DNA from: Paenibacillus sp. 37
GTDB lineage: Bacteria > Bacillota > Bacilli > Paenibacillales > Paenibacillaceae
DNA: 64,000 nt
NCBI RefSeq assembly: GCF_008386395.1
Contig: NZ_CP043761.1
Coordinates: 1,364,001-1,428,000, forward strand
Direction: 5' to 3'
This document shows positions 20,687 through 35,671 of the stretch, piece by piece. Below the pieces are notes generated by a model. That model was not told the DNA's origin. It saw nothing but the letters and a program-made list of their open reading frames with translations, and ran no database searches. The translations under genes and the position numbers were made by a program. Each line of letters begins with the position of its first letter. The first letter of the stretch is position 1.

Positions 20687-21658
20687 ATGCAACCAGATGG
20701 GAAGTCCGCCTTATCGCAAAACTTATCGGTATACACCAATCCGAGCAGTAAGAAAAATAAATTATGGAGAAGGACGATTCGGAACTGGGAGTTGTATCTG
20801 TTTATCGCGCCAGCCTTTTTATACTTTCTGATATTCCATTATGGTCCGATGTACGGCATACAAATTGCATTTAAAAACTTTATCCCAACGCTTGGTGTCA
20901 CAGGAAGCCCATGGGTCGGATTCGATCATTTCATCCGTTTCTTCAATTCGTATTATTTCTGGGATTTATTATGGAATACCCTTAGCATCAGCTTGTATGA
21001 GCTGGCTATAGGTTTTCCACTGCCGATTATTCTGGCGTTAGCGTTCAATGAAGTGAAGGATTCCTTCTTCAAGCGTACTGTGCAGACCGTCACGTATGCA
21101 CCGCATTTCATTTCGGTCGTGGTGATGTCGGGCATGATCATTACCTTTTTATCACCCTCGTCAGGCATGATTGTCAATTTGGTACAGGCCCTTGGATTCC
21201 AGGCACCTCAATTCCTGACGGACCCTGCGTGGTTCAAGACAGTGTATGTACTGTCGGGAGTCTGGCAAAGTGCAGGCTGGGGCACCATTATATACCTTGC
21301 CGCTCTATCGGGTGTGGACCCGCAACTGCATGAAGCGGCTGTGGTGGATGGTGCGAGCCGGTTTAAACGAATTTTGCATATTAACATTCCAGCGATCATC
21401 CCTACGATCACGATCTTGTTAATTCTGAATATGGGCAGTATTCTGGGCGTCGGATTTGAGAAAATCCTGCTGCTGCAAAATCCGCTGAACATGGGCTCGT
21501 CCGATGTCATCTCAACTTTTGTCTATCGGTCCGGTCTGGTCGATGCACAGTACAGTTTCTCTACGGCGGTGGGATTGTTCAACTCCGTAGTTAATGCGAT
21601 TCTGCTTATTACCGTGAATCAGATTGCACGCCGTACCAGTGAAAACAGCCTATGGTAA
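20687..21658 (+). CDS. Sugar ABC importer permease, LplB type
   Basis: A 323-residue inner-membrane permease with six predicted TM helices after a roughly 35-residue cytoplasmic N-terminus. The EAA loop that contacts the ATPase is visible (EAAVVDGASRFKRILHINIP). This subfamily (B. subtilis LplB/YteP) imports complex oligosaccharides. AAGGAGG lies 9 bases before the ATG. It is the first gene of the operon permease-permease-lipoprotein; the second permease follows after 15 bases. No ATPase is encoded here, as usual for systems sharing an MsmX-type ATPase. Confidence 0.93.
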   Translation: MQPDGKSALSQNLSVYTNPSSKKNKLWRRTIRNWELYLFIAPAFLYFLIFHYGPMYGIQIAFKNFIPTLGVTGSPWVGFDHFIRFFNSYYFWDLLWNTLSISLYELAIGFPLPIILALAFNEVKDSFFKRTVQTVTYAPHFISVVVMSGMIITFLSPSSGMIVNLVQALGFQAPQFLTDPAWFKTVYVLSGVWQSAGWGTIIYLAALSGVDPQLHEAAVVDGASRFKRILHINIPAIIPTITILLILNMGSILGVGFEKILLLQNPLNMGSSDVISTFVYRSGLVDAQYSFSTAVGLFNSVVNAILLITVNQIARRTSENSLW

Positions 21659-21673
21659 AAGGAGGGAATACAC

Positions 21674-22582
21674 ATGTCATCCGCAGTGAAAGAAAGCAGA
21701 AGCGATAAGGTGTTCTTAGTGTGCAACTACATCTATCTGACGGTAGCGCTCGTGATTGTGTTGTATCCGCTGCTATATATCATCAGTGCCTCAATTAGTG
21801 ATCCCAAATACGTAAGCTCCGGGGAGATGTGGTTACTTCCGAAAGGAATTACATTTGAGGGCTATGCCCGGGTGTTTGAGAACACCAACATCTGGATCGG
21901 GTACAAAAATACAATTATCTATACGGTCGTAGGTACCATCGTTAACCTGATTGTCACGTTACCAGCAGCCTATGCGCTCAGCCGCTCGGATTTTGTGGGA
22001 CGCGGATTCTTCATGGCGATGTTTATGGTAACGATGTTCTTCGGCGGAGGGCTTGTCCCAAGTTACCTGCTGGTCAAGGATCTTGGTATGGTGAATAGCA
22101 TGTGGGCACTTATTCTGCCTGGAGCTGCATCCATCTGGAATATTATCGTATGCCGTACATTCTTCCAATCGACCATCCCCAAGGAGTTGCAGGAAGCGGC
22201 GCATATAGATGGCTGTACCAACACCCGGTTGTTCATCAAGATTGTGCTTCCGCTCTCCATGCCAATCATTGCAGTGATGGCACTCTTTTACGGAGTTGGA
22301 CACTGGAACAGCTATTTTAGTGCGATGATCTATCTGAATGATTCCTCCAAGTACCCGTTGCAGCTCTTTCTGCGCCAGATTCTGGTGCTTCAGGAAATGG
22401 CGGCGCAGGGGGGAGGCGCTATCGATACATCTTCAGCAACGGCGATGAATACCAAAGCGGAGATTGCTGCACTGGTCAAATATGCTGTCATTATTGTTGC
22501 GACCCTACCGGTCATTGCAGTGTATCCATTCCTCCAGCGTTACTTTGTACAGGGTGTTATGATCGGTTCCGTTAAGGGCTGA
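21674..22582 (+). CDS. Sugar ABC importer permease, LplC/YtcP type
   Basis: A 302-residue permease with six TM helices and the EAA motif EAAHIDGCTNTRLFIKIVLP. It is the partner of the preceding LplB-type permease in a heterodimeric channel. An AGGAGGG-like ribosome binding site lies in the 15-base gap. The substrate-binding lipoprotein gene follows after 41 bases. Confidence 0.93.
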   Translation: MSSAVKESRSDKVFLVCNYIYLTVALVIVLYPLLYIISASISDPKYVSSGEMWLLPKGITFEGYARVFENTNIWIGYKNTIIYTVVGTIVNLIVTLPAAYALSRSDFVGRGFFMAMFMVTMFFGGGLVPSYLLVKDLGMVNSMWALILPGAASIWNIIVCRTFFQSTIPKELQEAAHIDGCTNTRLFIKIVLPLSMPIIAVMALFYGVGHWNSYFSAMIYLNDSSKYPLQLFLRQILVLQEMAAQGGGAIDTSSATAMNTKAEIAALVKYAVIIVATLPVIAVYPFLQRYFVQGVMIGSVKG

Positions 22583-22623
22583 TCTTAATCCATATACCAC
22601 ATTAAACAAGGGGAGTTGTTGTC

Positions 22624-24219
22624 ATGAAAAAGCTTCGCAAGGCTTCATCCATTACACTCTGTCTCACCTTATTCGCAACATTGCTTGCAGCTTGTGGTTC
22701 AACCAATGAAGACGGAAGCACGACCTCCAAAGTTGAGGGAGTCAAAAAAGAAGGCTTTCCTATTGTAGACAAAACGTTAACCTTGAAGGTCATGTCCCAG
22801 GATGCCGGCGTAGCCGACTGGAGCACAATGCCTGTGCTGCAAGAGATGGAGAAATTGTCGGGCATCAAGCTGGAATACCAGCTATCACCGATCGACAGCT
22901 TTGAAACGAAAAAAAATCTGGTATTTGCCAGCGGAGACTTGCCGGATATGTTCTATGCTGCGGACCTCAAGCCAGCCGAGCAGGTGACATATGGCAGCCA
23001 GGGCATCCTGATCCCGTTGGAGAAATACATTGACGAAGGTTACGCCCCGAATATCAAAAAGATTCTCGATGAGAACCCGGATGTCCGCAAATCATTCACA
23101 ACACCTGATGGGCATATGTATGCCCTCCCATTCATTGATAAAGCGGCTGTGTGGTATAGAGGCCCAATGTGGTACAACGGGGAATTCCTAAAGGCGCTTA
23201 ACGTAGAAGAGCCCAAGACCACGGAAGAATTGTATACGTATCTCAAGCGTGTCAAAGAAGAAGATCCGAATGGCAATGGCCAGCAAGATGAAATTCCGCT
23301 GACTTCTGTAAAACTGGATGATCTTCGCATGTTCTTCTTCGGCTTCTGGGGAATGTACAACGAAGGCATCTATTCTGATAAGGACGGAAAAGTTCACTAC
23401 CCTTATCAAGAAGAAGGTTATAAAGGGTATCTGACATTCATGAATCGCTTGTGGAAGGAAGATTTGCTGGATCATGAGACCTTCTCTCAAACAGGCGATC
23501 AGAAAAAAGCTAAAGGTGAAAGCAACAAACTTGCACTGTTCAACGATTACCATCCATACTTCACGCTCGGTGGTGAACCTAGCACGGATCATCCGCTGAT
23601 GACACCCGTGAAGAGTGAGGTAGCAGACTCTCCGGTATACGGCAAACACCCGGGTATGTCGGCTCGCGGTACCTTTGCTATTACGAGCAGTAACCCGTCA
23701 CCTGAGGCGACGATGCGATGGATCGATTACTTGTACAGCTATGAAGGTGCGACTCTGTTCAATCAAGGTCCGGAAGGTGTGTTATGGCAATTCAAAGACA
23801 AGGAAAATCACGTAAAAGAGTGGCTTCCCGTTCCTGGGGGTGGGGATCGTGAGGAATACCGCGGTAAAATCACGCCGAACTTTGGTATCTTGACACCTGG
23901 CATTAATGATCCCGAAGTAGCGAAGGGTCTTCGCACCGAATTTGATGAGTGGATTGACCAGCAGAATCAAGAGAAGTTGGTACCTATCGGAAAAGCACCA
24001 TTTCCTAACGTTTATTTGACGAATGAAGAGCAAAGCGAAGCAACCGCTCTATTGTCTGACCTGGATACGTACGTTAAACAGATGGAAGCGAAGTTTGTGA
24101 CCGGCCAGGAACCACTTGAGAACTGGGATAAGTACATTGCACAGATGAAGAAAATGGGCAGTGACCGTATCATCGAACTGTATCAGGGGGCATATGACCG
24201 CTGGAATTCGGGGCAATAA
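22624..24219 (+). CDS. Oligosaccharide-binding lipoprotein, LplA type
   Basis: A 531-residue extracellular solute-binding protein. Its signal peptide ends in the lipobox LLAAC, with Cys24 as the lipid attachment site, followed by a Ser/Thr/Glu-rich tether. The length and the pattern GIKLEYQL..., FASGDLPDMFYA match the large LplA/YtcQ family that feeds LplBC permeases. No ligand can be assigned from sequence; the downstream fucosidase and GH18 genes suggest a fucosylated GlcNAc-containing oligosaccharide or glycopeptide. The gap to the fucosidase gene is about 105 bases with no clear terminator, so read-through is likely. Confidence 0.92.
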   Translation: MKKLRKASSITLCLTLFATLLAACGSTNEDGSTTSKVEGVKKEGFPIVDKTLTLKVMSQDAGVADWSTMPVLQEMEKLSGIKLEYQLSPIDSFETKKNLVFASGDLPDMFYAADLKPAEQVTYGSQGILIPLEKYIDEGYAPNIKKILDENPDVRKSFTTPDGHMYALPFIDKAAVWYRGPMWYNGEFLKALNVEEPKTTEELYTYLKRVKEEDPNGNGQQDEIPLTSVKLDDLRMFFFGFWGMYNEGIYSDKDGKVHYPYQEEGYKGYLTFMNRLWKEDLLDHETFSQTGDQKKAKGESNKLALFNDYHPYFTLGGEPSTDHPLMTPVKSEVADSPVYGKHPGMSARGTFAITSSNPSPEATMRWIDYLYSYEGATLFNQGPEGVLWQFKDKENHVKEWLPVPGGGDREEYRGKITPNFGILTPGINDPEVAKGLRTEFDEWIDQQNQEKLVPIGKAPFPNVYLTNEEQSEATALLSDLDTYVKQMEAKFVTGQEPLENWDKYIAQMKKMGSDRIIELYQGAYDRWNSGQ

Positions 24220-24324
24220 AGCCCATCAAGGTACATCCCATGCAGAAAGACAGCAGTTAGCTTCAATAATGTTAGCTGCCTTAAATTTTTCGCATATAAG
24301 AATTCTCGGGGGAGGTGGACCGTT

Positions 24325-25611
24325 ATGCAAAAATGGTTTGAAGAAGCCAAGCTGGGGATATTCATCCACTATGGCATCTATGCGGTAGACGGGGTTGCGG
24401 AGTCTTGGTCCTTCTATAATGGCAGGATGTCCCATGAAGAATATATGAAACAACTGGATGGGTTTACGGCTTCGGAATTCAACGCGGAGAAGTGGGCGGA
24501 CCTGATTGAAAAGTCTGGAGCCCGGTATGCGGTGCTGACAACGAAGCATCATGATGGCGTTGCGTTATGGGATACGCAATATAGCGATCTCAATGTTGTC
24601 AAACAGACACCAGCGAATCGTGACATTGTGAAGGAATATGCGGAAGCGATTCGGGAAAAGGGCATTCATCTGGGGATGTATTTCTCGCTGATTGATTGGT
24701 CACACCCGGATTATCCTAGCGTGTATGAAGGTGGAAAAGTACCGGAGGATCTCAGTAGTGTCAACCGGCATTCAAGTCCTGTGGACGGCGTTCAGGATCA
24801 GGCAAAGTGGCAGGAGTTCCTGCAATTTAATAACCATCAACTGGGAGAGATTTTAACAAATTACGGAAAGGTGGATCTGCTGTGGTTTGATGGGGACTGG
24901 GAACGGAGCGCCCAACAGTGGAATCTGCCGGAGTTCAAGCATTATCTTCAATCTTTTAACCCGGATATCATCATCAACTCCCGCCTTCAAGGTTATGGGG
25001 ATTACAAAACGCCTGAGCAGGGCATTCCGATTACAAGACCGGAGGGACCCTGGGAATTCTGCACCACAATCAATACATCTTGGGGTTATGTGCCAACAGA
25101 TCATAAATACAAGTCGTTAAATCAGATCATTCGAATGTTCTGTGACTGCATTTCCATGGGCGGTAATATGTTGCTGGATATCGGTCCGCGTGAAGATGGC
25201 ACCATCGATCAGAGGCAGGAGGATATTCTGCTTGGACTGGGAGCTTGGATCCGAACCCATGAAGAGGCCGTCTTCGGCACGGGTGAAGGCATTATGCCTC
25301 GCTATTATCTGGGGGGAAGCACCGTATCCGAGGATCGAAAGACGCTGTACCTGCTTGTGTATGACGATCCAAAAGAGAATGTGTGCATCAAAGGTCTCTG
25401 CAATCAGATCAAGAAAATTACCGTGCTGCATTCGGGCAAAGAACTCCATCATGAGATTCATGGAGGCGTGCCATGGTTCAATATTCCGGGAACAACGTGG
25501 ATTAAGATGACCCCGGAGGACACACATGAACAGGTGACCGTTCTTAAGCTCGAATTCGATGAGGAGCTGGAAATGTACGGCGGCGCTGGAGCCGTTGTCA
25601 CCCATAACTAA
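24325..25611 (+). CDS. GH29 alpha-L-fucosidase, intracellular
   Basis: A 428-residue GH29 enzyme that hydrolyses alpha-linked L-fucose with retention. The N-terminal catalytic barrel is clear: FIHYGIYAV, the TTKHHDGVALWD motif, and the nucleophile Asp189 in DLLWFDGDW. A shorter beta-rich C-terminal domain begins near residue 340. There is no signal peptide, so it acts in the cytoplasm on imported sugars. The acid/base residue of GH29 is poorly conserved and I do not assign it. GGGGGAGGTGG precedes the ATG. It is the first of four genes (24.3-30.4 kb) on one strand after the importer. Confidence 0.93.
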   Translation: MQKWFEEAKLGIFIHYGIYAVDGVAESWSFYNGRMSHEEYMKQLDGFTASEFNAEKWADLIEKSGARYAVLTTKHHDGVALWDTQYSDLNVVKQTPANRDIVKEYAEAIREKGIHLGMYFSLIDWSHPDYPSVYEGGKVPEDLSSVNRHSSPVDGVQDQAKWQEFLQFNNHQLGEILTNYGKVDLLWFDGDWERSAQQWNLPEFKHYLQSFNPDIIINSRLQGYGDYKTPEQGIPITRPEGPWEFCTTINTSWGYVPTDHKYKSLNQIIRMFCDCISMGGNMLLDIGPREDGTIDQRQEDILLGLGAWIRTHEEAVFGTGEGIMPRYYLGGSTVSEDRKTLYLLVYDDPKENVCIKGLCNQIKKITVLHSGKELHHEIHGGVPWFNIPGTTWIKMTPEDTHEQVTVLKLEFDEELEMYGGAGAVVTHN

Positions 25612-25619
25612 CTATTAGG

Positions 25620-25653
25620 GGGAGGGCGTGTGCCGATAGATGCATGCCCTCCC
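25620..25653 (+). other. Intergenic mRNA stem-loop between fucosidase and CBM9-like genes
   Basis: GGGAGGGCGTG (25620-25630) pairs with CATGCCCTCCC (25643-25653), an 11-bp stem with one wobble and a 12-base loop, without a following T-run. It is probably an mRNA processing or stabilising hairpin rather than a terminator. It also covers a possible upstream GTG start, supporting the ATG at 25675 for the next gene. Confidence 0.6.
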
Positions 25654-25674
25654 TTACGAATTGGAGAGAGTGAC

Positions 25675-26697
25675 ATGAACAGAAGTGGAGTGCCAGAGCC
25701 CAAGATTGAGTATGCTCCCAAACATTATATATGCAATCGTGCGCAGGAACCGTTGGTATTAGACGGCCGTGTGGATAAGGCATTTTGGGATACGGCCCAT
25801 TGGACAGATGATTTCGTTGATATCGAAGGTGATATTCGTCCAAAGCCAGAGAAACAGACGCAGGTAAAAATGCTGTGGGATGACGACTATTTCTACTTTG
25901 CTGCCGAGCTGATGGAAGATCAGATATGGGCTACCCTGACTGAGCGTGATTCCGTTATTTTTTATGATAATGACTTCGAGATTTTTATCGATCCCGACGG
26001 GGATTCCCATCAATATTATGAGTTTGAGATCAATGCGCTCAATACCGTATGGGACCTGTTATTAGTGAAGCCTTATCGGGATGGTGGGCCTCCGGTTAAC
26101 GGTTGGGATATCAGCGGTCTCAAGACGGCCGTATATATCGATGGGGAACTGAACAATCCTGGTGCGGATAACCGAAAATGGAGCTTGGAAGTTGCGATTC
26201 CCTGGAACAGTCTAAAGGAATGCGCCGAAGAAAACCGTCCACCTGCACCAGGTGAGTTCTGGCGTGTCAACTTCTCACGTGTGGAGTGGCAGACCGAGGT
26301 ACAGGGCGGTGAGTACCGCAAGGTGCTGAATCCGGAGACGGGCAAACCTTATCCAGAGGACAACTGGGTGTGGTCACCTATGGGTATTATCAACATGCAT
26401 TACCCGGAGTTATGGGGTTATGTTGTATTCTCGGATGACGGAACGGATCAGTCGTTTGAGTTGCCGGAAGACGAACGAATCAAATGGGAGCTTCGCAAGC
26501 TCTACTACCGTGAACGCAATTATTATGAAACCCATGGTGAATTTACACAGGATGTGAAGCTGCTTATGGGTGAGGAATCATGGAGTTGTGAGCCTGTTAT
26601 TGAAACGACTCGCAGCCTGTTCCAGATTACTGCGCCGTCTTCGGACGGAACGGCCTTGATCTGTATTCGGGAAGACGGAAAGCTGTGGAAGGAGTGA
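25675..26697 (+). CDS. CBM9-like carbohydrate-binding protein, cytoplasmic
   Basis: A 340-residue protein dominated by a CBM9-like beta-sandwich (about 20-250): LDGRVDKAFWDTA near the start, VKMLWDDDYFYFAAEL, then NDFEIFIDPDGDSHQYYEFE. These are hallmarks of the 'carbohydrate-binding family 9-like' domain usually found in secreted proteins. Here there is no signal peptide and no catalytic partner domain; a charged tail of about 80 residues follows. I chose ATG 25675 because GGAGAG stands 7 bases upstream. The gene lies between the fucosidase and transglutaminase-fold genes. The role is unknown; it may bind imported glycan inside the cell. Confidence 0.8.
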   Translation: MNRSGVPEPKIEYAPKHYICNRAQEPLVLDGRVDKAFWDTAHWTDDFVDIEGDIRPKPEKQTQVKMLWDDDYFYFAAELMEDQIWATLTERDSVIFYDNDFEIFIDPDGDSHQYYEFEINALNTVWDLLLVKPYRDGGPPVNGWDISGLKTAVYIDGELNNPGADNRKWSLEVAIPWNSLKECAEENRPPAPGEFWRVNFSRVEWQTEVQGGEYRKVLNPETGKPYPEDNWVWSPMGIINMHYPELWGYVVFSDDGTDQSFELPEDERIKWELRKLYYRERNYYETHGEFTQDVKLLMGEESWSCEPVIETTRSLFQITAPSSDGTALICIREDGKLWKE

Positions 26698-26704
26698 GAA
26701 TGCA

Positions 26705-29338
26705 ATGACCAGCCAAACCTTGGTATTTTCCCTTGATGCACAGTCATTGGAGAGAATCGAGCAGAAGTTCCAGGAGAAGGTACGTTTTGCAGAGGCCCGC
26801 AAATCGGAATTGTTTCATGTTTTTCAGCAGGAGCTAACGCATGAAGAGGCATGGGCGTTGAAGGTTGTCTATGCCTATATGCCGGTAAACGACATGGCTG
26901 ATTATAACGGGGACTTGTTCTTAAGTCATGTGCGACGGGCTTTGGACACTCGCAAACGTGTGCCTTGGGGAGAACGAGTTCCTGATCATTTGTTCCTTCA
27001 TTTTGTATTGCCTTATCGCATAAATACGGAAAATATTGAAGATTTCCGCGGTTTGATCTATGACGAATTAGCCGAGCGGACAGCGAAGTTATCCATGGCT
27101 GATGCCATTCTGGAGACCAATTACTGGTGTCATGAGAAAGCGACCTATATTGGTAGCGATCTGCGCACGATATCACCGCTGACGATGATCCGGAATGCTC
27201 GTGGTCGATGTGGCGAAGAATCCACGCTGGCGGTGGCCGCTCTTCGCAGCATCGGTATACCTGCCCGTCAGGTCTATACGCCGCGCTGGGCTCACTGCGA
27301 CAGCAATCATGCTTGGGTAGAAGCCTGGGCAGATGGTCAATGGTATTACATCGGGGCATGTGAGCCGGAAGCCCGTCTGAACCAAGGATGGTTCAGCCCG
27401 CCAGCCCGCAGGGCCATGCTGATTAATACAAGGATCTATGCCGACTATCCCGGACCAGAGGATATTACGCTCTCGGAAAAGGGATTTACGGAAATTAATT
27501 TGCTTGAGAACTATGCGCCCACACGCAACATCTATGTGAAGGTGAAAAATGAACAGGGAGAGCCCGTACCCGGCGCGAGTGTTCGTTTTGAGCTGTACAA
27601 TACGGCTGAATTCTATCCGATTGCCGAAATTAGGACGGATGCACAAGGGGAAGCGACCTTTAAGACTGGCTGTGGTGACCTTTTGATTCGTGCAGTTAGC
27701 GGCGGCAAGTGGAGTGAGATCCTATTCAAGGCTCAGGAAAACAAGGTTATCGAACTGGTGTTAGACTCGGCAGAGCAGCCTACAGGGAGTGCAGATTTCG
27801 ATATGGTCCCTCCGCCTGAAGGGAAAGGAGAGGTCGGGACTGCGTTACCCGAAGAGAAGATGCAGGAACACAACCGTCGTCTGGAGGAAGGAGCGCAGAT
27901 CCGTGGCAGGTACGAAGACACTTTCCTGAGTGAGGAGGAAGCTGTCTCGTTATCTAAAGGGGTTGGACTTCCCTCCGTACGTGTATGGGATATTCTCCGC
28001 AAGGCACGGGGGAACAGCCGGGTAATTGCAGCTTTCCTGGAGGAACGTTCCAATCCATACGGTGAGTGGCCGCTCCGGTTGCTGGAGTCGATGAATGAAA
28101 AAGATTTAATTGATACTTTTCGCCAGACGCTGGATGATCATCTGATTGGTGCACTCTCGCAGCAAGGATCATGGGCGGAAGATACGTTTGTGAGATACAT
28201 CCTGTGTCCGCGGATTTCCTATGAGATGCTGGTCCCTTATCGAGGTGTATTCCACAATGCCTTTTCGGCAGATGAGGCGGCAGCGTTCAGGGAGAATCCC
28301 TCGACACTTGCCCGAATGCTGGAACAGCAATATGAATACTATGAAGATCTTCCTAATCTAAAAGGCAAAGGGAATCCAATAGGGACGTTTAGTCTAATGA
28401 AGGGAGACTCTCAGTCGCTGGATATTTTGTTTGTGGCTGTATGTCGCAGTTTGGGTATTCCAGCCCGATTACATCCGAGCGCACAGAAACCACAGTATCT
28501 AAGTGACAAAGGCTGGGAGGATGCAGTGTTTAGTCTCACCTCACCTCAAACTCAAAAGAGCACAAGCTGGGGAATGCTCCATCTTCATAGGGATATAAAA
28601 GTTCCGCAGGATACACCTGAAGCATCTTATTTCGAAAATTTCTCGTTTGCCCTTCTGGAAGATGGCGTCTACAAGACGTTGATTTATCCTTATGGCAGTA
28701 CGGATGTCTATAGTGAGCCATATGAGGTTGAGGCAGGAGCTTATCGCTTAACGACAGGCATTCGGATGAAAGATGGAACGGCAAAAGTACGATTCGTTTA
28801 CTTTACCGTGAACGCTGGAGATACCACTGAGGTTGTCTTGTCTTATCGCGAGACTGAGGTTGATATTCCTGTACTGGGTAAACTGGCACCAGGAAGTATA
28901 CTGACCCGTCTGAATGGTACAGAGGTAGAACTGGAGGAACTTCTGGGATCGGAGGGTGCCATTGCTGCCTGGATTGAACCGGAGCGGGAACCGACCAAAC
29001 ATCTGATTCGTGAACTGTGCGAGCTGGCAGAGCCGCTGGATAAGTTGGGTATTCCAATCGTACTCATGATCGGAGATATGGAATGGAACGCTTCTTTTGA
29101 CCCTGTTGGTTATCCAAAGCTGCCTGTACGTACGGTTTTTGTACAAGATTCCAGTTATGCTTCCTTGTCTGGCTTCATTTCGAAGCCTGCGGCTTATGAA
29201 GCGGGTTATCCACATCTGTTTGTGCTGGATACTCTGCATCAAGTTCGTTATTCGGCTTCCGGGTACAAGATTGGTACCGGGAAGGAAGCCTTGCAGATTG
29301 CTGCTGCGATATCTCAATCATCGATTGGATCGGAGTGA
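26705..29338 (+). CDS. Duplicated transglutaminase-fold protein, cytoplasmic
   Basis: An 877-residue protein without signal peptide. Residues about 1-270 form a transglutaminase/PNGase-like thiol domain with Cys169 in GRCGEES and His202 in NHAWVEAW. At the third triad position the sequence reads YYIGACEPE, with Gly where Png1-type enzymes have Asp (Glu220 is close by). A CarboxypepD_reg/Ig-like domain (about 272-350) follows. A second, degenerate transglutaminase-like unit lies at about 430-680: KGDSQSLDILFVAVCRSLGI aligns with the first active site but has Ser569 in place of Cys. The C-terminus (about 740-870) looks like a thioredoxin fold without CxxC. Related proteins occur in gut Bacteroidetes, as I recall. 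A role in cutting glycopeptides or amide bonds is inference from the neighbours (GH29, GH18). The GH18 gene begins 9 bases after the stop. Confidence 0.78.
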   Translation: MTSQTLVFSLDAQSLERIEQKFQEKVRFAEARKSELFHVFQQELTHEEAWALKVVYAYMPVNDMADYNGDLFLSHVRRALDTRKRVPWGERVPDHLFLHFVLPYRINTENIEDFRGLIYDELAERTAKLSMADAILETNYWCHEKATYIGSDLRTISPLTMIRNARGRCGEESTLAVAALRSIGIPARQVYTPRWAHCDSNHAWVEAWADGQWYYIGACEPEARLNQGWFSPPARRAMLINTRIYADYPGPEDITLSEKGFTEINLLENYAPTRNIYVKVKNEQGEPVPGASVRFELYNTAEFYPIAEIRTDAQGEATFKTGCGDLLIRAVSGGKWSEILFKAQENKVIELVLDSAEQPTGSADFDMVPPPEGKGEVGTALPEEKMQEHNRRLEEGAQIRGRYEDTFLSEEEAVSLSKGVGLPSVRVWDILRKARGNSRVIAAFLEERSNPYGEWPLRLLESMNEKDLIDTFRQTLDDHLIGALSQQGSWAEDTFVRYILCPRISYEMLVPYRGVFHNAFSADEAAAFRENPSTLARMLEQQYEYYEDLPNLKGKGNPIGTFSLMKGDSQSLDILFVAVCRSLGIPARLHPSAQKPQYLSDKGWEDAVFSLTSPQTQKSTSWGMLHLHRDIKVPQDTPEASYFENFSFALLEDGVYKTLIYPYGSTDVYSEPYEVEAGAYRLTTGIRMKDGTAKVRFVYFTVNAGDTTEVVLSYRETEVDIPVLGKLAPGSILTRLNGTEVELEELLGSEGAIAAWIEPEREPTKHLIRELCELAEPLDKLGIPIVLMIGDMEWNASFDPVGYPKLPVRTVFVQDSSYASLSGFISKPAAYEAGYPHLFVLDTLHQVRYSASGYKIGTGKEALQIAAAISQSSIGSE

Positions 29339-29346
29339 AGAGAGTG

Positions 29347-30390
29347 ATGAAATATATTGCTGCGGGTTATGCCGTTGATTCAGTTCTTCCTGACATGACA
29401 CATGAGGATCTGTCGAAGTTAACACATCTGAACATAGCCTTCGGACATGTCAAGAATGATGCAATCACTACCGAGCATTTAAAAAATGGCCATGTGATCC
29501 AGAACATCAAGCGGGAGCATCCAAATCTTAAAGTGCTGTTGTCTGTAGGCGGATGGAGCGCTGGCGGTTTTTCCGAAGCCGCCTCAACCCAGGCGGGGAG
29601 GGACAGCATGGCTGCATCGGCGTTTAGGGCGCTGGAGGAATATCCTTTTGACGGGATCGATCTGGACTGGGAATATCCTTGTTACGGTGAAGCTGGTATC
29701 GCATCCAGTCCTGATGATAAACGGAATTTTACCTTACTTCTCAAGACGATGCGGGAGGCACTGAGTGCCAAGGGAGAAGCGGATGGCCGTCATTATCTGC
29801 TCACCATTGCAGCAGGGGCTGATCAATACTACGTTGATGGCACAGAGATGGCCGAGGTGCAGCAGTACCTGGATTACGTGCAGTTGATGACCTATGATAT
29901 GCGCGGCGGTTTTCAGGTTCTGACCGGACACCATACGAATCTGTACACGCCAACAGGAGATCTGTTTCGAATTAGTACGGATGCTTCCGTGGCCCTGTTT
30001 GTTCGAGCTGGTGTCCCGAAGGAGAAGATTGTGATCGGAGCTGCGTTCTATTCCCGGATCTGGAATGAGGTTCCTGACCGAAACCACGGGCTCCATCAAA
30101 TGGCTGGTAGCACAGGCGGCTATGGTCCGTCATTTGCCGAGCTGGAAGCGAAGTACATTAACAAGAATGGCTTCACTCGTTATTGGGATGAAGAAGCCTG
30201 TGCACCGTTTCTGTTTAATGGGTCCAGCCTCATATCTTATGATGATGAAGAATCGATCCAATGCAAATGTGATTACGTAAAGGAGCAAGGTCTGGCCGGC
30301 ATCATGTTCTGGGAGTACGGCTGTGATCCGACTCACCGTTTGCTGGATGCAGTGCATCAAGGACTTCAACATTTCCCGGCTGAGAAATAG
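29347..30390 (+). CDS. GH18 chitinase/ENGase-like glycosidase, cytoplasmic
   Basis: A 347-residue single-domain GH18 protein. The substrate-assisted catalytic motif DGIDLDWEYP is intact (the last Glu is the acid), preceded by the SVGGWS strand and followed by MTYDMRGG; a chitinase insertion domain seems present. GH18 enzymes cleave beta-1,4 bonds after GlcNAc in chitin or in the chitobiose core of N-glycans. No signal peptide is present, so it acts on imported material. I prefer ATG 29347 to the GTG at 29335 that overlaps the upstream stop, because the ATG gives the standard family N-terminus; translational coupling with the transglutaminase gene is likely either way. It is the last gene before a bidirectional terminator. 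Confidence 0.9.
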   Translation: MKYIAAGYAVDSVLPDMTHEDLSKLTHLNIAFGHVKNDAITTEHLKNGHVIQNIKREHPNLKVLLSVGGWSAGGFSEAASTQAGRDSMAASAFRALEEYPFDGIDLDWEYPCYGEAGIASSPDDKRNFTLLLKTMREALSAKGEADGRHYLLTIAAGADQYYVDGTEMAEVQQYLDYVQLMTYDMRGGFQVLTGHHTNLYTPTGDLFRISTDASVALFVRAGVPKEKIVIGAAFYSRIWNEVPDRNHGLHQMAGSTGGYGPSFAELEAKYINKNGFTRYWDEEACAPFLFNGSSLISYDDEESIQCKCDYVKEQGLAGIMFWEYGCDPTHRLLDAVHQGLQHFPAEK

Positions 30391-30446: not shown

Positions 30447-30480
30447 AAACCTCCCCTAACCATGTGGTCAGGGGAGGTTT
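30447..30480. terminator. Bidirectional terminator
   Basis: AAACCTCCCCT / AGGGGAGGTTT perfect 11-bp stem with a 12-base loop between the convergent GH18 and AraC-sensor genes. Confidence 0.88.
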
Positions 30481-30500: not shown

Positions 30501-32801
30501 TTATCCAGTACATTCCTCGTCATCATCATCCGGGGAATCGGCGGAGCCGTTGGGACGGTGCAATTTACGGTATTGCCCTGGGGTATAACCCGTCTCTTTT
30601 TTGAATTTGCGGATGAAGTTTGGTGTATCCAGGTAACCGACACGCGTGATGATATCTTTTAACGGATCGGTAGTATGCAGCAGTAGTCGAATGACCTCAT
30701 CCATCCGTTTCTGCCAGATATATTGGGTAAAGTTCATGCCGATCTTTTCTTTGAAAGAACGACTGAAATAGGATGAAGAGATCGTGAATTTCGATGAAAT
30801 CGTACCTAAACTGAGATCATAATCAGAGAAATTGGCATCGATATAAGCAACGATTTCATCCATAAGAGAGCTTTCTTCCGTCTCACTCTTCGCCTCGACA
30901 TGGGCGCAGATTTCGGCGGCGAGGCCTGTCAGTTTTTTCTCCAAATCCTCCAACGAGTCGTAGGAAGTGATCCTTGGAAGTTGATCAACCACATGATGGA
31001 TTCCAAGCTCCGAAGCGGTTTTGAGCATGGTATTCAGAATATCAAAGCAGATGCAACGCAGCAGCGGTACAGACGGCATTTCGGATTTCAGGGTATTCAA
31101 CGCAGTTGACACCATCTGAACCGCCACATCATAGCTGCCTTGTTTTAAGCTCTGAACCAGCTTTAATAACACATCCTTAGGGACCCAGAAGGAAGAATCC
31201 TGTACATCGGAACCGGAAAGGTTGTTAAAATATGTACTGGTGCCCTGTCCATGCAGCATCGATGCTTCCAGAGCGGTCGAGGCCTCAATGTAGGACTGAT
31301 TCAGCTGTTTCGGATAAGTGTACCGATTGCCTATCCCGATTGCGGGCGCGACCCCGGTGTGTTCTGTCACCATCCATTGCAGTTTTTCAACGATAGGCTC
31401 CATACGGGTATTCAGGCTACCTTCATGCCCAATTTCGGCATCGAATCCCACGATAAGGGCCAATTGGTCTGCCTGTGGCAGCTCTACGCCGTAAGCATAA
31501 GCAGACAACTCGGGCAGCTCCACATCGTTCATCAGCTGCATGACAGTAGGTTGCTCGGGGTTATCACCGATAGGAAAAGCATGCATTTCCCAGCCCATGA
31601 TCATGACAAAATAATGGGATCGGTTAAAGCGTATGCCAAGCTTATCCGTAAACTCAGAGGGAAAATCTCCGGTGTGACCGTGCTTCAGCAACATGAGCAA
31701 AATATGATTGCGAGCATAGGGCTCCTGAAGATCTACGCGCTGACTATAATCATGCAGTGTTTTTTTTATCCATTCCAGCTCGTTGGTGGTGGAGGATGGA
31801 TCAGGATCATTCTTCAACCGAATGAACTCCATTAAGTCTGAAATCGGATGGTACTGTCTTCGGGCCAACATAATGGCGAGGAACGTGCCCATCACCACCA
31901 TGAAGGAGAAAACAAGAACAACAAAGGTGCGAATATGAACGATTCGGCTAAAAAATTGGTTGCTGGGCATAGCGGTTACATAAGTCCAACCCGCATCCGA
32001 TTTAACGGATACAACCGAATGTGGTTCTTGATTTAAGGAGATGCTGTGCGTTCCGGGTTCAAGAACAAACAGAGCGTTAACTTCCTGTTCGGATATGATT
32101 TCTCCCTTGTAATTGGCTGCCAGTACTTGCCCGAAATTATCGAAAATATAAGTCATCCCGTGATAGTCGCTGAGGATGGAATCAATTAGGCCCGTCAGAT
32201 TGGACTCGTGAATCAGGTACATGACGGTTCCATGGGCGGGCGTATTGTTAGGTGCAATCGGTACAAGGTAGGCCAGCATGGAATTGGGTATTCTGGTTCC
32301 TTGGACGACCTGCTCCGCTGGACGTATCGTGGGGGACTGTACGCTATTCAAATCCCGGATCATGTCTGTTTTGTTCCACGTAGTAAATTTGTAGCGACCA
32401 GTGAATACATCCAGGTTCTCAGAACCTTGAGAAGAATAGATGTTATCATCTCCACGGAAGAACAGGAATAACTCATCGATAATGGAACTGGTGGCTTTGT
32501 ATTTGACCAATGCGCCGATTGATTCCCGACTATAGTACGGATGGTGGGTCCAATATCGCGTTAACTGCTCATCGTAGGCGATGCGAAAAGCAATGTCTTG
32601 GAGTTCCTTCATGCGATCATCAATGACCGTTTTGGCTTGAGTGAGCTGATTGACATTGGTCTGTTCAATCTCTGAACGGAGCGTGTCCACAGCGTTGTGA
32701 TAAATAATGATGGTTAAAATAACAAGAGGGATCAGGAAAATGGAGATATAGGATAGTGTGTACTTAAACAGAAGCTTGGACTTGAAGTGATTCCATTTCA
32801 T
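30501..32801 (-). CDS. Membrane-anchored AraC-family sensor-regulator
   Basis: A 766-residue one-component regulator. TM1 (about 14-34), an extracytoplasmic sensor of about 260 residues with Cache-like pattern, TM2 (about 295-317), a cytoplasmic linker region, and a C-terminal AraC DNA-binding domain (about 655-757) with two helix-turn-helix units (LGTISSKFTISSSYFSRSFK and the second ending FIRKFKKETGYTPGQYRKLH). Such proteins in Paenibacillus usually control neighbouring sugar transport or glycosidase genes by sensing an external ligand. Candidate targets are the GH29-GH18 locus, which converges on it, or the upstream xylosidase gene on the same strand. Confidence 0.9.
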   Translation of the reverse strand: MKWNHFKSKLLFKYTLSYISIFLIPLVILTIIIYHNAVDTLRSEIEQTNVNQLTQAKTVIDDRMKELQDIAFRIAYDEQLTRYWTHHPYYSRESIGALVKYKATSSIIDELFLFFRGDDNIYSSQGSENLDVFTGRYKFTTWNKTDMIRDLNSVQSPTIRPAEQVVQGTRIPNSMLAYLVPIAPNNTPAHGTVMYLIHESNLTGLIDSILSDYHGMTYIFDNFGQVLAANYKGEIISEQEVNALFVLEPGTHSISLNQEPHSVVSVKSDAGWTYVTAMPSNQFFSRIVHIRTFVVLVFSFMVVMGTFLAIMLARRQYHPISDLMEFIRLKNDPDPSSTTNELEWIKKTLHDYSQRVDLQEPYARNHILLMLLKHGHTGDFPSEFTDKLGIRFNRSHYFVMIMGWEMHAFPIGDNPEQPTVMQLMNDVELPELSAYAYGVELPQADQLALIVGFDAEIGHEGSLNTRMEPIVEKLQWMVTEHTGVAPAIGIGNRYTYPKQLNQSYIEASTALEASMLHGQGTSTYFNNLSGSDVQDSSFWVPKDVLLKLVQSLKQGSYDVAVQMVSTALNTLKSEMPSVPLLRCICFDILNTMLKTASELGIHHVVDQLPRITSYDSLEDLEKKLTGLAAEICAHVEAKSETEESSLMDEIVAYIDANFSDYDLSLGTISSKFTISSSYFSRSFKEKIGMNFTQYIWQKRMDEVIRLLLHTTDPLKDIITRVGYLDTPNFIRKFKKETGYTPGQYRKLHRPNGSADSPDDDDEECTG

Positions 32802-33116: not shown

Positions 33117-34634
33117 TTATTCGTTCAGAGGTTCATAGTCAAACCAATCGAAACTTGCAGGTGTAGACTCCTCCGATGGAGCATAAGCGTACATGGCGAT
33201 CATCACACCAGTGAAACCACTCGCCACTTCGGTAGATAACAGATGTGTTTCTCCTGAACCCACTTCAATGGCATCGGATGAACCTTGCTGGTAGAGGAAC
33301 GTGAAGTGATTACGGTCAGCCTTGATTTGTATTACAACAGGCCCCTTGTCACAGTCAAGCACCTGTTCGGTTCGCATAGAGCCGACGGTTCGTCGCAATA
33401 CGATTTTCTTCTGCCCATCGACCTGTGTTACAGCCAAATCGTAATGATATTTATCATTCATAAATAAGGTTAATCCAGCTTCCTCACCGCTCGCATTTGG
33501 CTCATAATACAGCTCGGTGGCCGTATTGCATAAGAAATGGCTCAATCGACGCCCAACAAAGGCTGGATTTCTACCCTCATCGAGCGATACCGAATTCCCC
33601 CGCAGGATGAGTTGTCCGGGATTTTCTGTGAGTGTCCAACTATTCGGAGCCGGGTTCCGCAAGAAGATCCAGTTCATGTCCAAGGTTGGTTCGTCAAAAT
33701 GATCCCGGGCAGCCTGAGGTGACCAAGGGTGCTGAGGCAATGAAGGTCCAGTCATCACCGGTTCAATATGTCCATCAACACCAATTGTCGGCCAATCGTT
33801 ATCCGTCCATGTGACAGGTGCCAGGAACGTTTCACGTCCCAGATGGTGCCGCATGGGGTAACCTGCTGGACGGATGCCAAGACATACGGCCCACCAGCTT
33901 CCATCCTGGATCTGGATAAGGTCTGCATGTCCAGTTGCATGGATACTGGTTTTCATGCTTCGATTGGACAGAATTGGATTATGAGGACACGGATCAAATG
34001 GTCCGTATGGCTCTGTGCTTCGAGCAATGGTCTCCATATGACCATACTCGGTTCCACCTTCGGCGATCATCAGATAGTAGAGGTTATTTATTTTATACAT
34101 GTGGGGAGCTTCGGGGGCTGCGCCTCCGGTTCCGGTCCAGATTAATCGGCTATCCGTTAGTCTGGCTCCGGTCATGATGTCTATCTCGCATTGATAGATG
34201 CCCTCGCCTTCATCGCCGTTACAGGCCGTTTGAAAATACACATGTCCATCTTCATCAAAGAGAAAAGAGGGATCAATGCCGCCCTGATCAACAAAAATCG
34301 GAGCAGACCATGGTCCCTCGGGCTGGGCACTACGTACATAAAAATTCCCGCCGCCGCTGACATTGGTTGTTGTCATATAGAACCAGCCATCATGGTACCG
34401 GAGAGTAGGGGCATAAATGCCGCCAGAGTTGCCCGCGTTTGCTAGAGGGAGTTGCTCCGTTGTTGTGAGGACATGGCCGATCTGTCGCCAGTTCACAAGG
34501 TCTTTGCTGTGGAAGATGGGCACACCAGGGAAATATTCAAAGGTACTGGTTACCAGATAATAGTCTTCATCTACACGGCAGATACTTGGATCTGGATAAA
34601 ACCCCGGAATGACCGGATTGGTATATTTCATCAT
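33117..34634 (-). CDS. GH43 beta-xylosidase / alpha-L-arabinofuranosidase
   Basis: A 505-residue cytoplasmic GH43 enzyme. The five-bladed propeller (about 1-310) opens with YTNPVIPGFYPDPSIC, where Asp15 is the general base, and contains GGIDPSFLFDEDG and the acid Glu in PEAPHMYK. A beta-sandwich C-terminal domain (about 320-505) is typical of XynB-like GH43 xylosidases. No signal peptide is present, so it would split imported xylo- or arabinoxylo-oligosaccharides. AGGAG stands 6 bases before ATG 34634, with a second in-frame ATG right after it. It is divergent from a cupin-AraC regulator and upstream of the AraC sensor gene on the same strand. Confidence 0.93.
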   Translation of the reverse strand: MMKYTNPVIPGFYPDPSICRVDEDYYLVTSTFEYFPGVPIFHSKDLVNWRQIGHVLTTTEQLPLANAGNSGGIYAPTLRYHDGWFYMTTTNVSGGGNFYVRSAQPEGPWSAPIFVDQGGIDPSFLFDEDGHVYFQTACNGDEGEGIYQCEIDIMTGARLTDSRLIWTGTGGAAPEAPHMYKINNLYYLMIAEGGTEYGHMETIARSTEPYGPFDPCPHNPILSNRSMKTSIHATGHADLIQIQDGSWWAVCLGIRPAGYPMRHHLGRETFLAPVTWTDNDWPTIGVDGHIEPVMTGPSLPQHPWSPQAARDHFDEPTLDMNWIFLRNPAPNSWTLTENPGQLILRGNSVSLDEGRNPAFVGRRLSHFLCNTATELYYEPNASGEEAGLTLFMNDKYHYDLAVTQVDGQKKIVLRRTVGSMRTEQVLDCDKGPVVIQIKADRNHFTFLYQQGSSDAIEVGSGETHLLSTEVASGFTGVMIAMYAYAPSEESTPASFDWFDYEPLNE

Positions 34635-34804
34635 GTTATGCTCCTATTCATGTCGAAAGTGTAATATGGACCTGGACGTATGAGAGATATCCTTGCTACA
34701 AGGGGCATTATATCGTCTTCAATCATTTCCAACCTTGATTTTTCGGTCCTCGAATAGCATGATATAGACATTCAACCCAACATGGTTTGCGGAGGGGAAT
34801 GCTT

Positions 34805-35671
34805 TTGAGTAATGCATATTTGAGATGGTTTACCTCGGATCATCAACAATTTCCGTTTTTTATTCAGTACGGTGGACATGTTGAGGACATGGAGCTTCAT
34901 AATCATATGGATTTTACGGAACTTGTGATTGTTCTGAATGGTCATGCAACCCATGTGGTGAACACCGAAGAATTTTTTATTAAAAAAGGGAACGCATTTG
35001 TGATTAATGGTGACACCCATCATGCGTATAAAGACCCTCATGATTTTAGGATCTGTAATATTATGTTCAGTCCCGAGATGCTTGCTTCGGCCGGTCCCGA
35101 TCTGAGAAAATCTAACGGCTTTCAGGCGTTGTTTGTTTTGGAACCGTTGTATCGTAATATTCACTCATTTCCGAGTAAACTTTCGTTATCCATTTCCAGT
35201 CTGGAGTATGTGGAATCACTGATATCGTTCATGATTGAGGAGTATCAGAGTAAACAGCAAGGGTATCAGACGATGTTGATCTCACGTCTTACGGAGATGG
35301 TTGTTTATTTATCGAGACAATATGATACGCAGGAGAAAGGGATTGAAGGTAATAATCTGATGCATCTGGCCAATGCCATTTCATTTATTGAAGATCATTA
35401 TCTGGAGCCACTGTCGCTAGAGGATATTGCGGGGAAGTCGAATATCTCCATAAGGCATCTGAACCGGATTTTTCGATCCTATTATCAGATGACCCCGATC
35501 TCTTATCTGCAAAAGTTGCGTCTGGAGAAGGCTTGTCATTTGTTGAAAAACGGGAATCTGTCCATCACGGAAATTTCGTATGAATGTGGATTTAACGACA
35601 GTAATTATTTCACCCGCCAGTTCAAGAAAGCCTTTGGTAAGTCTCCCAAAACATACAGGCAGAATCATTAA
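34805..35671 (+). CDS. AraC-family regulator with cupin sensor
   Basis: A 288-residue regulator: N-terminal cupin-like ligand domain (about 20-95; MELHNHMDFTELVIVLNG) and C-terminal AraC double helix-turn-helix (about 185-285; LSLEDIAGKSNISIRHLNRI and NDSNYFTRQFKKAFGKSPKT). I choose TTG 34805 because GGAGGGG ends 7 bases upstream; ATG 34799 is too close to it and TTG 34787 precedes it. It is divergent from the GH43 xylosidase gene with a 170-base gap and is its likely regulator. Confidence 0.9.
   Translation: MSNAYLRWFTSDHQQFPFFIQYGGHVEDMELHNHMDFTELVIVLNGHATHVVNTEEFFIKKGNAFVINGDTHHAYKDPHDFRICNIMFSPEMLASAGPDLRKSNGFQALFVLEPLYRNIHSFPSKLSLSISSLEYVESLISFMIEEYQSKQQGYQTMLISRLTEMVVYLSRQYDTQEKGIEGNNLMHLANAISFIEDHYLEPLSLEDIAGKSNISIRHLNRIFRSYYQMTPISYLQKLRLEKACHLLKNGNLSITEISYECGFNDSNYFTRQFKKAFGKSPKTYRQNH

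What the first reader, a model, noticed from the sequence alone, without database searches (positions are those of the whole stretch)
24325..30390. Four-gene cytoplasmic module: GH29 + CBM9-like + transglutaminase-fold + GH18 behind an oligosaccharide importer
None of the four proteins shows a signal peptide, although CBM9-like, GH18 and GH29 proteins of soil Firmicutes are often secreted. They follow an LplABC-type importer on the same strand with short gaps. GH29 removes fucose, GH18 cuts next to GlcNAc, and the transglutaminase fold is that of peptide:N-glycanases. Together they suggest import of a fucosylated glycan or glycopeptide and dismantling inside the cell. I know of no described pathway with this set; the function is inference from family roles and gene order.
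Basis: partly seen in the sequence, partly recalled or inferred. Interest (0 to 1): 0.8.

Follow-up and report, generated by a model that had tools for sequence, protein, structure and literature searches.

The report
Imported N-glycan dismantling cassette in Paenibacillus
A soil bacterium carries a block of genes that appears to import small sugar-decorated protein fragments and take them apart inside the cell, using a transglutaminase-fold protein with no assigned job as the candidate cutter of the sugar-protein bond.

Summary
Observation confirmed: GH29, a CBM9-like protein, an 877-aa transglutaminase-fold protein (TG) and GH18 lie head to tail behind an SBP plus two-permease importer, without export signals by a crude hydropathy test. 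They are inherited as one unit: in 75 same-genus genomes TG, CBM9 and GH18 orthologues occur in the same 35, GH29 in 34 of these; 40 have none at the thresholds used. Relatives show its likely purpose: GH125, GH38 or GH92 alpha-mannosidases join some cassettes, one reading importer-CBM9-TG-GH125-GH38-GH92; another holds asparaginase II and an aminopeptidase. Orthologues of these GH125 and GH38 enzymes stand beside a GH85 endoglycosidase elsewhere in the own genome. This supports an N-glycan/glycopeptide role. Corrections: the GH18 is nearest an exo-N-acetylglucosaminidase (6inx); TG is only weakly PNGase-like, with Gly at the catalytic Asp position in 52 of 52 homologues; related pathways are in print (L. 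casei alf-2, S. pneumoniae). The open question is whether this TG family, without export signal in Firmicutes and exported in Bacteroidetes, is a new glycan-asparagine amidase. No activity is shown.

The parts
20687..21658 (+). ABC sugar permease 1 (LplB-like)
   Evidence: PF00528 E 5.9e-16; syntenic in most of the 18 loci
21674..22582 (+). ABC sugar permease 2 (LplC-like)
   Evidence: PF00528 E 1.3e-11
22624..24219 (+). Solute-binding lipoprotein of the importer; nearest solved chains are 5g5y, AlgQ1/2 and the 5xs8/5gub group
   Evidence: PF01547; PDB sequence search; N-terminal hydrophobic segment and lipobox-like LLAAC
24325..25611 (+). GH29 alpha-L-fucosidase, no export signal seen; candidate for removing core fucose
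   Evidence: PF01120 E 1.7e-94; best PDB hit 6gn6 E 5.8e-72; D189 of the WFDG motif in all 56 aligned rows
25675..26697 (+). CBM9-like protein, about 340 aa (ORF open from GTG 25630); role unknown, the gene most often found next to TG in Firmicutes
   Evidence: PF06452 E 9.7e-11; model of pLDDT 57 finds CBM9 structures first; within 5 kb of TG in 30 of 38 Firmicutes loci
26705..29338 (+). 877-aa transglutaminase-fold protein: TG core about 124-220 with Cys169 and His202, beta-sandwich 274-355 (3e8v-like), helical middle part, second degenerate TG-like stretch about 555-600 (place judged by eye), thioredoxin-like C-terminus 722-871
   Evidence: PF01841 with 2 stretches; AlphaFold model pLDDT 87.9; structure matches; conservation
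29335..30390 (+). GH18, exo-beta-N-acetylglucosaminidase-like, no export signal seen; DGIDLDWE motif at residues 106-113
   Evidence: PF00704 E 2e-72; 6inx 'N-acetylglucosaminidase' E 3.4e-177, gapless over 340 residues; D109, D111 and E113 in all 46 aligned rows
30447..30480 (.). Hairpin between the convergent GH18 and AraC genes, likely shared terminator
   Evidence: read from sequence; not reported by the scan because of its loop size
30501..32801 (-). AraC-type regulator with N-terminal sensor region; its relatives flank or sit inside the cassette in other genomes
   Evidence: PF12833 E 1.9e-21; synteny

Best explanation
The unit 20687-30390 is an uptake-and-digest cassette for small N-glycan-core compounds that still carry asparagine or a short peptide, for example (Fuc)GlcNAc-Asn-peptide or (Man)nGlcNAc2(Fuc)-Asn-peptide left by extracellular proteases and endoglycosidases. 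The SBP and two permeases (using a shared ATPase encoded elsewhere; inferred) bring the compound into the cytoplasm. GH29 removes the core fucose, GH18 removes GlcNAc from the chitobiose part, and the TG protein, through Cys169 and His202, hydrolyses an amide bond, most likely the GlcNAc-Asn bond; the CBM9-like protein binds sugar. Shown here: gene content, linkage, all-or-none inheritance, recurring company of N-glycan mannosidases and (in few loci) asparaginase or peptidases, absence of export signals by a crude test, conserved GH29 and GH18 catalytic motifs. Inferred: the substrate, the order of steps, the amidase role of TG and the role of CBM9.
For: Unit inheritance: TG (E <= 1e-3), CBM9 (E < 1e-150) and GH18 (E <= 1e-100) in the identical 35 of 75 genus genomes, GH29 (E <= 1e-100) in 34 of them, none of the four at these thresholds in the other 40 (sets compared by eye). 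N-glycan mannosidases in the same locus: GH125 in L032/L056 (one contig fetched twice), L034, L044, L116 (partial), L132, L134, L135; GH38 in L035 (opposite strand), L046 (8 kb away, partial), L065, L074, L133, L135 (partial, at the edge); GH92 in L078, L116, L133. G085 reads importer-(AraC)-CBM9-TG-GH125-GH38-GH92. The own genome's GH125 (75% to L032), 1059-aa GH42-like protein (64% to L044) and GH38 (57% to L035) lie in a locus with a GH85 that has an N-terminal hydrophobic stretch. Among carriers GH125 lies inside the cassette in 5 of the 8 that lack GH85 and in 0 of the 27 that have it (positions compared by eye). Peptide side: asparaginase II and M17 aminopeptidase between AraC and CBM9-TG in L071, M3 peptidase downstream of GH18 in L062, L064, L066 and L077. 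The glycosylasparaginase family PF01112 is in 0 of 75 genus genomes, so the known type of enzyme for GlcNAc-Asn was not found. Bacteroidetes homologues have export segments, and exported GH29 stands near TG in 10 of 42 loci.
Against: No activity data for any protein here. The TG lacks the catalytic Asp in 52 of 52 homologues (G217) and has no pair of CxxC motifs (one CxxC in 1 of 52, at residue 19); PNGases are matched only at E 0.06-0.58, and in the profile search another TG (3isr) scores better, E 0.0039 (in the single-sequence search 3isr is worse, E 0.13). GH85 and GH125 are also common without the cassette (18 of 40 and 22 of 40 non-carriers), and the associations are confounded by shared ancestry: four of the five GH125-in-cassette genomes share one arrangement. 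Only a minority of loci carry a mannosidase near TG, and the window's own operon has none. In Bacteroidetes 32 of 42 loci show no GH29 of this cluster near TG and none shows CBM9 or GH18 of these clusters; 9 of 10 Bacteroidetes neighbours scanned are not glycosidases. The SBP is nearest 5g5y/AlgQ-type chains; the NgtS entries 5SWA/5SWB are not among the 14 rows at E up to 1e-3.
Confidence: 0.62

Rival explanations
1. It is an N-glycan/glycopeptide cassette as above, but TG does not cut the sugar-asparagine bond: it is a peptidase or other amidase acting on the peptide part, or a binding/scaffold protein whose triad has decayed, and the GlcNAc-Asn bond is cut by something else (for example an asparaginase-like enzyme).
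For: Catalytic Asp replaced by Gly in 52 of 52; a generic TG chain (3isr, named 'transglutaminase-like enzymes, putative cysteine protease') is the better profile match; asparaginase II and peptidases appear near TG in some loci; TG carries a thioredoxin-like region and a second, degenerate TG-like stretch.
Against: Cys169, His202, E206 and the GACE stretch are invariant in 26 Firmicutes and 26 Bacteroidetes sequences, which speaks against decay; PF01112 was found in 0 of 75 genus genomes; the asparaginase was seen in one locus only.
Confidence: 0.22
2. A chito-oligosaccharide or fucosylated lipochitooligosaccharide (Nod/Myc-factor-like) salvage cassette: GH18 and GH29 trim GlcNAc chains with reducing-end fucose, and TG removes an acyl group.
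For: GH18 is closest to 6inx, which I recall as PbNag39, an enzyme studied for chitin conversion (cited in PMC8471714, passages seen); GH29 with a GlcNAc-releasing enzyme could serve fucosylated chito-oligomers (inference).
Against: Mannosidases GH125, GH38 and GH92, asparaginase and peptidases in some of the loci do not fit chitin; Bacteroidetes loci have TG without this GH18.
Confidence: 0.09
3. A plant cell-wall cassette: GH29 acts on fucosylated xyloglucan or pectin fragments, and the GH43/AraC genes downstream belong with it.
For: GH43 and a second AraC gene lie about 3-4 kb downstream; the nearest solved CBM9 chains come from xylanases.
Against: The GH43 cluster was found in 10 of 98 loci, those of the close relatives; no xyloglucan or pectin enzyme was seen among the neighbours that were identified, though many neighbours were not identified.
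Confidence: 0.07

Closest known systems
Lactobacillus casei alf-2 pathway for Fuc-alpha-1,6-GlcNAc-Asn (PMC6960285; outline, abstract and passages seen)
   Same: Import of a core-fucosylated glyco-amino acid, cytoplasmic GH29 defucosylation, cytoplasmic cleavage of GlcNAc-Asn.
   Different: Uses an MFS permease and the glycosylasparaginase AsnA2; 'transglutaminase' and 'GH18' occur 0 times in its main text. PF01112 was found in 0 of 75 genomes examined here.
Streptococcus pneumoniae carbohydrate-processing locus with EndoD and NgtS-P1P2 (PMC5215778; passages seen)
   Same: ABC import of N-glycan fragments; GH38, GH125, GH92 and GH29 genes together. GH125, GH38 and GH92 also stand behind CBM9-TG in G085.
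   Different: Acts on glycans freed from protein by the GH85 EndoD before import; the passage's gene table, as far as seen, lists GH20 and ROK, and no TG, CBM9 or GH18.
Cytosolic PNGase (NGLY1/Png1) of eukaryotes (PMC9102325; passages seen)
   Same: Transglutaminase fold; similar GRCGE...H-W-E...W...CE pattern in the alignment.
   Different: Catalytic Asp replaced by Gly, no CxxC zinc site, extra sandwich, helical and thioredoxin-like parts, no significant sequence match.
PNGase F-type and GH85/GH18 endoglycosidases of bacteria (PMC10154615, PMC9522356; passages seen)
   Same: Same overall purpose, N-glycoprotein foraging.
   Different: The review places these enzymes commonly outside the cell, and the two Bacteroides PNGases studied are predicted periplasmic; PNGase F has a fold of two eight-stranded subdomains.
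PbNag39 beta-N-acetylglucosaminidase of Paenibacillus barengoltzii (that 6inx is PbNag39 is recalled; cited in PMC8471714, passages seen)
   Same: 6inx matches the cassette's GH18 without gaps over 340 residues.
   Different: Studied for chitin conversion; its genomic neighbours were not examined here.

Membership tests
Cytosolic PNGase (NGLY1/Png1) | Transglutaminase core fold | tested here: met
Cytosolic PNGase (NGLY1/Png1) | Cys-His-Asp catalytic triad | tested here: not met
   Cys169 and His202 in 52 of 52, but the position aligned with the PNGase Asp is Gly in 52 of 52; so it is not filed as a PNGase
Cytosolic PNGase (NGLY1/Png1) | Zinc site of two CxxC motifs | tested here: not met
   A CxxC occurs in 1 of 52, at residue 19, outside the domain
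Cytosolic PNGase (NGLY1/Png1) | Significant sequence relation | tested here: inconclusive
   1x3w and 3esw E 0.06-0.07 by single sequence, 0.53-0.58 by profile
Cytosolic PNGase (NGLY1/Png1) | Release of N-glycan from Asn, leaving Asp | not testable with these tools
   needs an enzyme assay
GH29 alpha-L-fucosidase | Family profile and catalytic Asp in WFDG (its role recalled) | tested here: met
GH18 | Family profile and DxxDxDxE motif | tested here: met
L. casei alf-2 type pathway | Glycosylasparaginase (Asparaginase_2) gene | tested here: not met
   PF01112 in 0 of 75 genus genomes; that AsnA2 belongs to PF01112 is recalled
S. pneumoniae type N-glycan locus | GH38, GH125 and GH92 together at the locus | tested here: not met
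   Not in the window's own cassette; present in the related cassette of G085 and, as GH38 and GH125, in a second locus of the own genome
CBM9 | Family profile and fold | tested here: met
   PF06452 over its cut-off; Foldseek first hits are CBM9 chains, but the model has pLDDT 57

The most novel reading that the evidence does not exclude
The roughly 870-900-aa TG family, without export signal in Bacilli and exported in Bacteroidetes, is a further, undescribed class of glycan-asparagine amidase built on the transglutaminase fold with a Cys-His pair and no Asp. It lets bacteria cut the N-glycan from peptides after import, so that N-glycopeptides rather than released glycans are the imported food.
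Probability: 0.35. Interest if true: 0.82.

Novelty: new variant of a known kind. Interest (0 to 1): 0.6.

Why it matters
If right, Paenibacillus and relatives would feed on the sugar-bearing peptide stump, or whole small glycopeptide, of N-glycoproteins, and a protein family shared by soil Bacilli and gut Bacteroidetes would get a function. A bacterial relative in fold of NGLY1 would also be a useful comparison for that enzyme and a possible tool for removing core-fucosylated GlcNAc from peptides.

Tried and rejected
Rejected: 'GH18 is an ENGase'. NCBIfam's Endo H model scores 33.5 bits against a cut-off of 300, and the nearest structure is named N-acetylglucosaminidase. Rejected as stated: 'TG is a PNGase', because two defining features fail. 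No PNGase chain is among the 50 rows shown, which excludes nothing. The CBM9 protein's AlphaFold model is poor (pLDDT 57, six sequences), so its C-terminal part remains undefined. A promoter and terminator scan gave counts no higher than shuffles (23 vs 22.0; 12 vs 11.2). Rfam (gathering threshold) and tRNA scans of the window were empty. Of 48 neighbour proteins selected, 30 were scanned by Pfam and one more; 17 were not scanned. Of the 10 Bacteroidetes neighbours only one (GH92) is a clear glycosidase. PF01112 was chosen for the last genome search, so PNGase F families were not searched in these genomes. The neighbour clusters use BLASTP E < 1e-15 and half coverage, so distant family members are missed; the loci are partly redundant (for example L026/L070 and L032/L056).

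I saw no listed title or passage that joins a transglutaminase-fold protein with GH29 or GH18 in bacteria; searches show 0 occurrences of the transglutaminase term in every listed paper (7 of 7 listed; 12 listed of 91), and (transglutaminase, CutC, fucosidase, Bacteroides, glycopeptide; at least four) returned 0 papers. Other lists were cut (for example 15 of 155), and only open-licence papers are held, so absence from print is not shown.
Full report
WHAT IS THERE. The window lies in a 7.6-Mb genome (G000); the nearest named holders of the TG gene are Paenibacillus species (up to 92% identity, which may leave out very near records). From 20687 to 30390 on the + strand run two ABC permeases, an SBP, GH29, a CBM9-like protein, an 877-aa transglutaminase-fold protein (TG) and GH18. 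The unit is tight, with a 4-bp TG/GH18 overlap, and ends in a hairpin facing a convergent AraC-type regulator.

IT IS ONE INHERITED UNIT. In the same 75 genus genomes TG was found in 35, the CBM9 orthologue at E < 1e-150 in 35 (the 36th genome tallied had only a weak, different match), GH18 at E <= 1e-100 in 35 and GH29 at E <= 1e-100 in 34. The 35 are the same genomes; only G085 lacks GH29 at that threshold. In the other 34 all four lie within 8 kb. Of 18 neighbourhoods read, 15 have GH29-CBM9-TG-GH18 in order (two with an extra gene, GH125); the other three keep CBM9-TG (two) or TG alone of the four (one). In the 38 Firmicutes loci, genes of these clusters lie within 5 kb of TG as follows: CBM9 in 30, GH18 in 26, GH29 in 20 (loci on short contigs count as misses). 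In the 42 Bacteroidetes loci GH29 is near in 10, CutC in 14, CBM9 and GH18 in none.

WHAT THE NEIGHBOURS SAY. In several variants of the cassette the additions are enzymes known from N-glycan breakdown. GH125 stands between GH29 and CBM9 in G009, G029, G075 and G086 and behind TG in G085; also in L044 with a 1115-aa GH42-like protein. GH38 stands beside TG in L035 (opposite strand) and L074, 2.6 kb away in L065, 8 kb away in L046, and behind GH125 in G085. GH92 is in G085, L078 and L116. G085 reads importer-(AraC)-CBM9-TG-GH125-GH38-GH92; that genome has no GH85 match above the cut-off, so TG stands where a glycan-protein cut would be needed (inference; other endoglycosidases were not searched). 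In L071 an L-asparaginase II and an M17 aminopeptidase lie between AraC and CBM9-TG; M3 peptidases lie downstream of GH18 in four Saccharibacillus loci. Most loci show no such additions.

LINK WITHIN THE OWN GENOME. G000 has six GH38, three GH125 and one GH85 match. A second locus at 5.78-5.80 Mb holds a GH85 with an N-terminal hydrophobic stretch (maximum 2.11), a probable regulator pair, a probable SBP with two permeases, part of a GH3, two GH38, GH125 and a 1059-aa GH42-like protein. Its GH125, GH42-like and shorter GH38 proteins are 75%, 64% and 57% identical to those near TG in L032, L044 and L035. GH85 would leave (Fuc)GlcNAc-Asn on peptide; the window's cassette has the content expected for that stump (inference).

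CO-OCCURRENCE, WITH CAVEATS. GH85 above cut-off is in 27 of 35 carriers and 18 of 40 non-carriers (Fisher p 0.005); GH125 in 35 of 35 and 22 of 40 (p 1.2e-6); GH125 inside the cassette in 5 of the 8 carriers without GH85 and 0 of the 27 with it (p 1.7e-4). These p-values ignore relatedness; four of the five share one arrangement and may be a single event. Glycosylasparaginase (PF01112) is in 0 of 75, while 5 of 14 control genomes ring.

GH29, GH18 AND SBP. GH29 is nearest 6gn6; its linkage preference cannot be told from sequence. GH18 matches 6inx without gaps, which points to exo release of GlcNAc, so the chitobiose bond rather than an endo cut in a polymer. The SBP is in the group of 5g5y, AlgQ and 5xs8, consistent with an oligosaccharide or larger ligand, not diagnostic.

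VERDICT. An intracellular N-glycan/N-glycopeptide cassette is the best reading (0.62). The L. casei alf-2 pathway and the S. pneumoniae locus are the closest known systems found; this one differs by TG, CBM9 and GH18. The TG as glycan-Asn amidase is a testable proposal, not a result.

Noticed in passing
L085, L087, L088, L092, L100, L104, L108, L112, L114, L115, L118 and others (14 of 42 Bacteroidetes loci): A gene of the CutC cluster (PF03932 tested in L085; family named for copper homeostasis, recalled) lies near TG and in several loci next to GH29, suggesting a role of some CutC proteins in glycan or glycopeptide breakdown.
   Followed up: partly
L129:10731-13910 (own genome, about C1:5.78 Mb) and L044:5606-8953: A 1059-1115-aa protein with only weak GH42 similarity stands next to GH125 in both places (64% identity between the two); possibly an undescribed glycosidase of the N-glycan core.
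   Followed up: partly
G000:C1:5772000-5811800 (L129, L130): Second N-glycan-type locus of the own genome: GH85, probable regulator pair and importer, GH3, two GH38, GH125.
   Followed up: yes
L059:6701-9034: A peptidase M60 gene sits between SBP and TG in Paenibacillus terrigena; M60 is otherwise known for glycoprotein cleavage (recalled).
   Followed up: no
G061 and G067, L063: TG is broken into several frames in these genomes; the cassette may be decaying there, or the assemblies carry errors.
   Followed up: no
window 33117-35671: GH43 and a second AraC regulator next to the cassette; the GH43 cluster was found in 10 of 98 loci, all close relatives.
   Followed up: no
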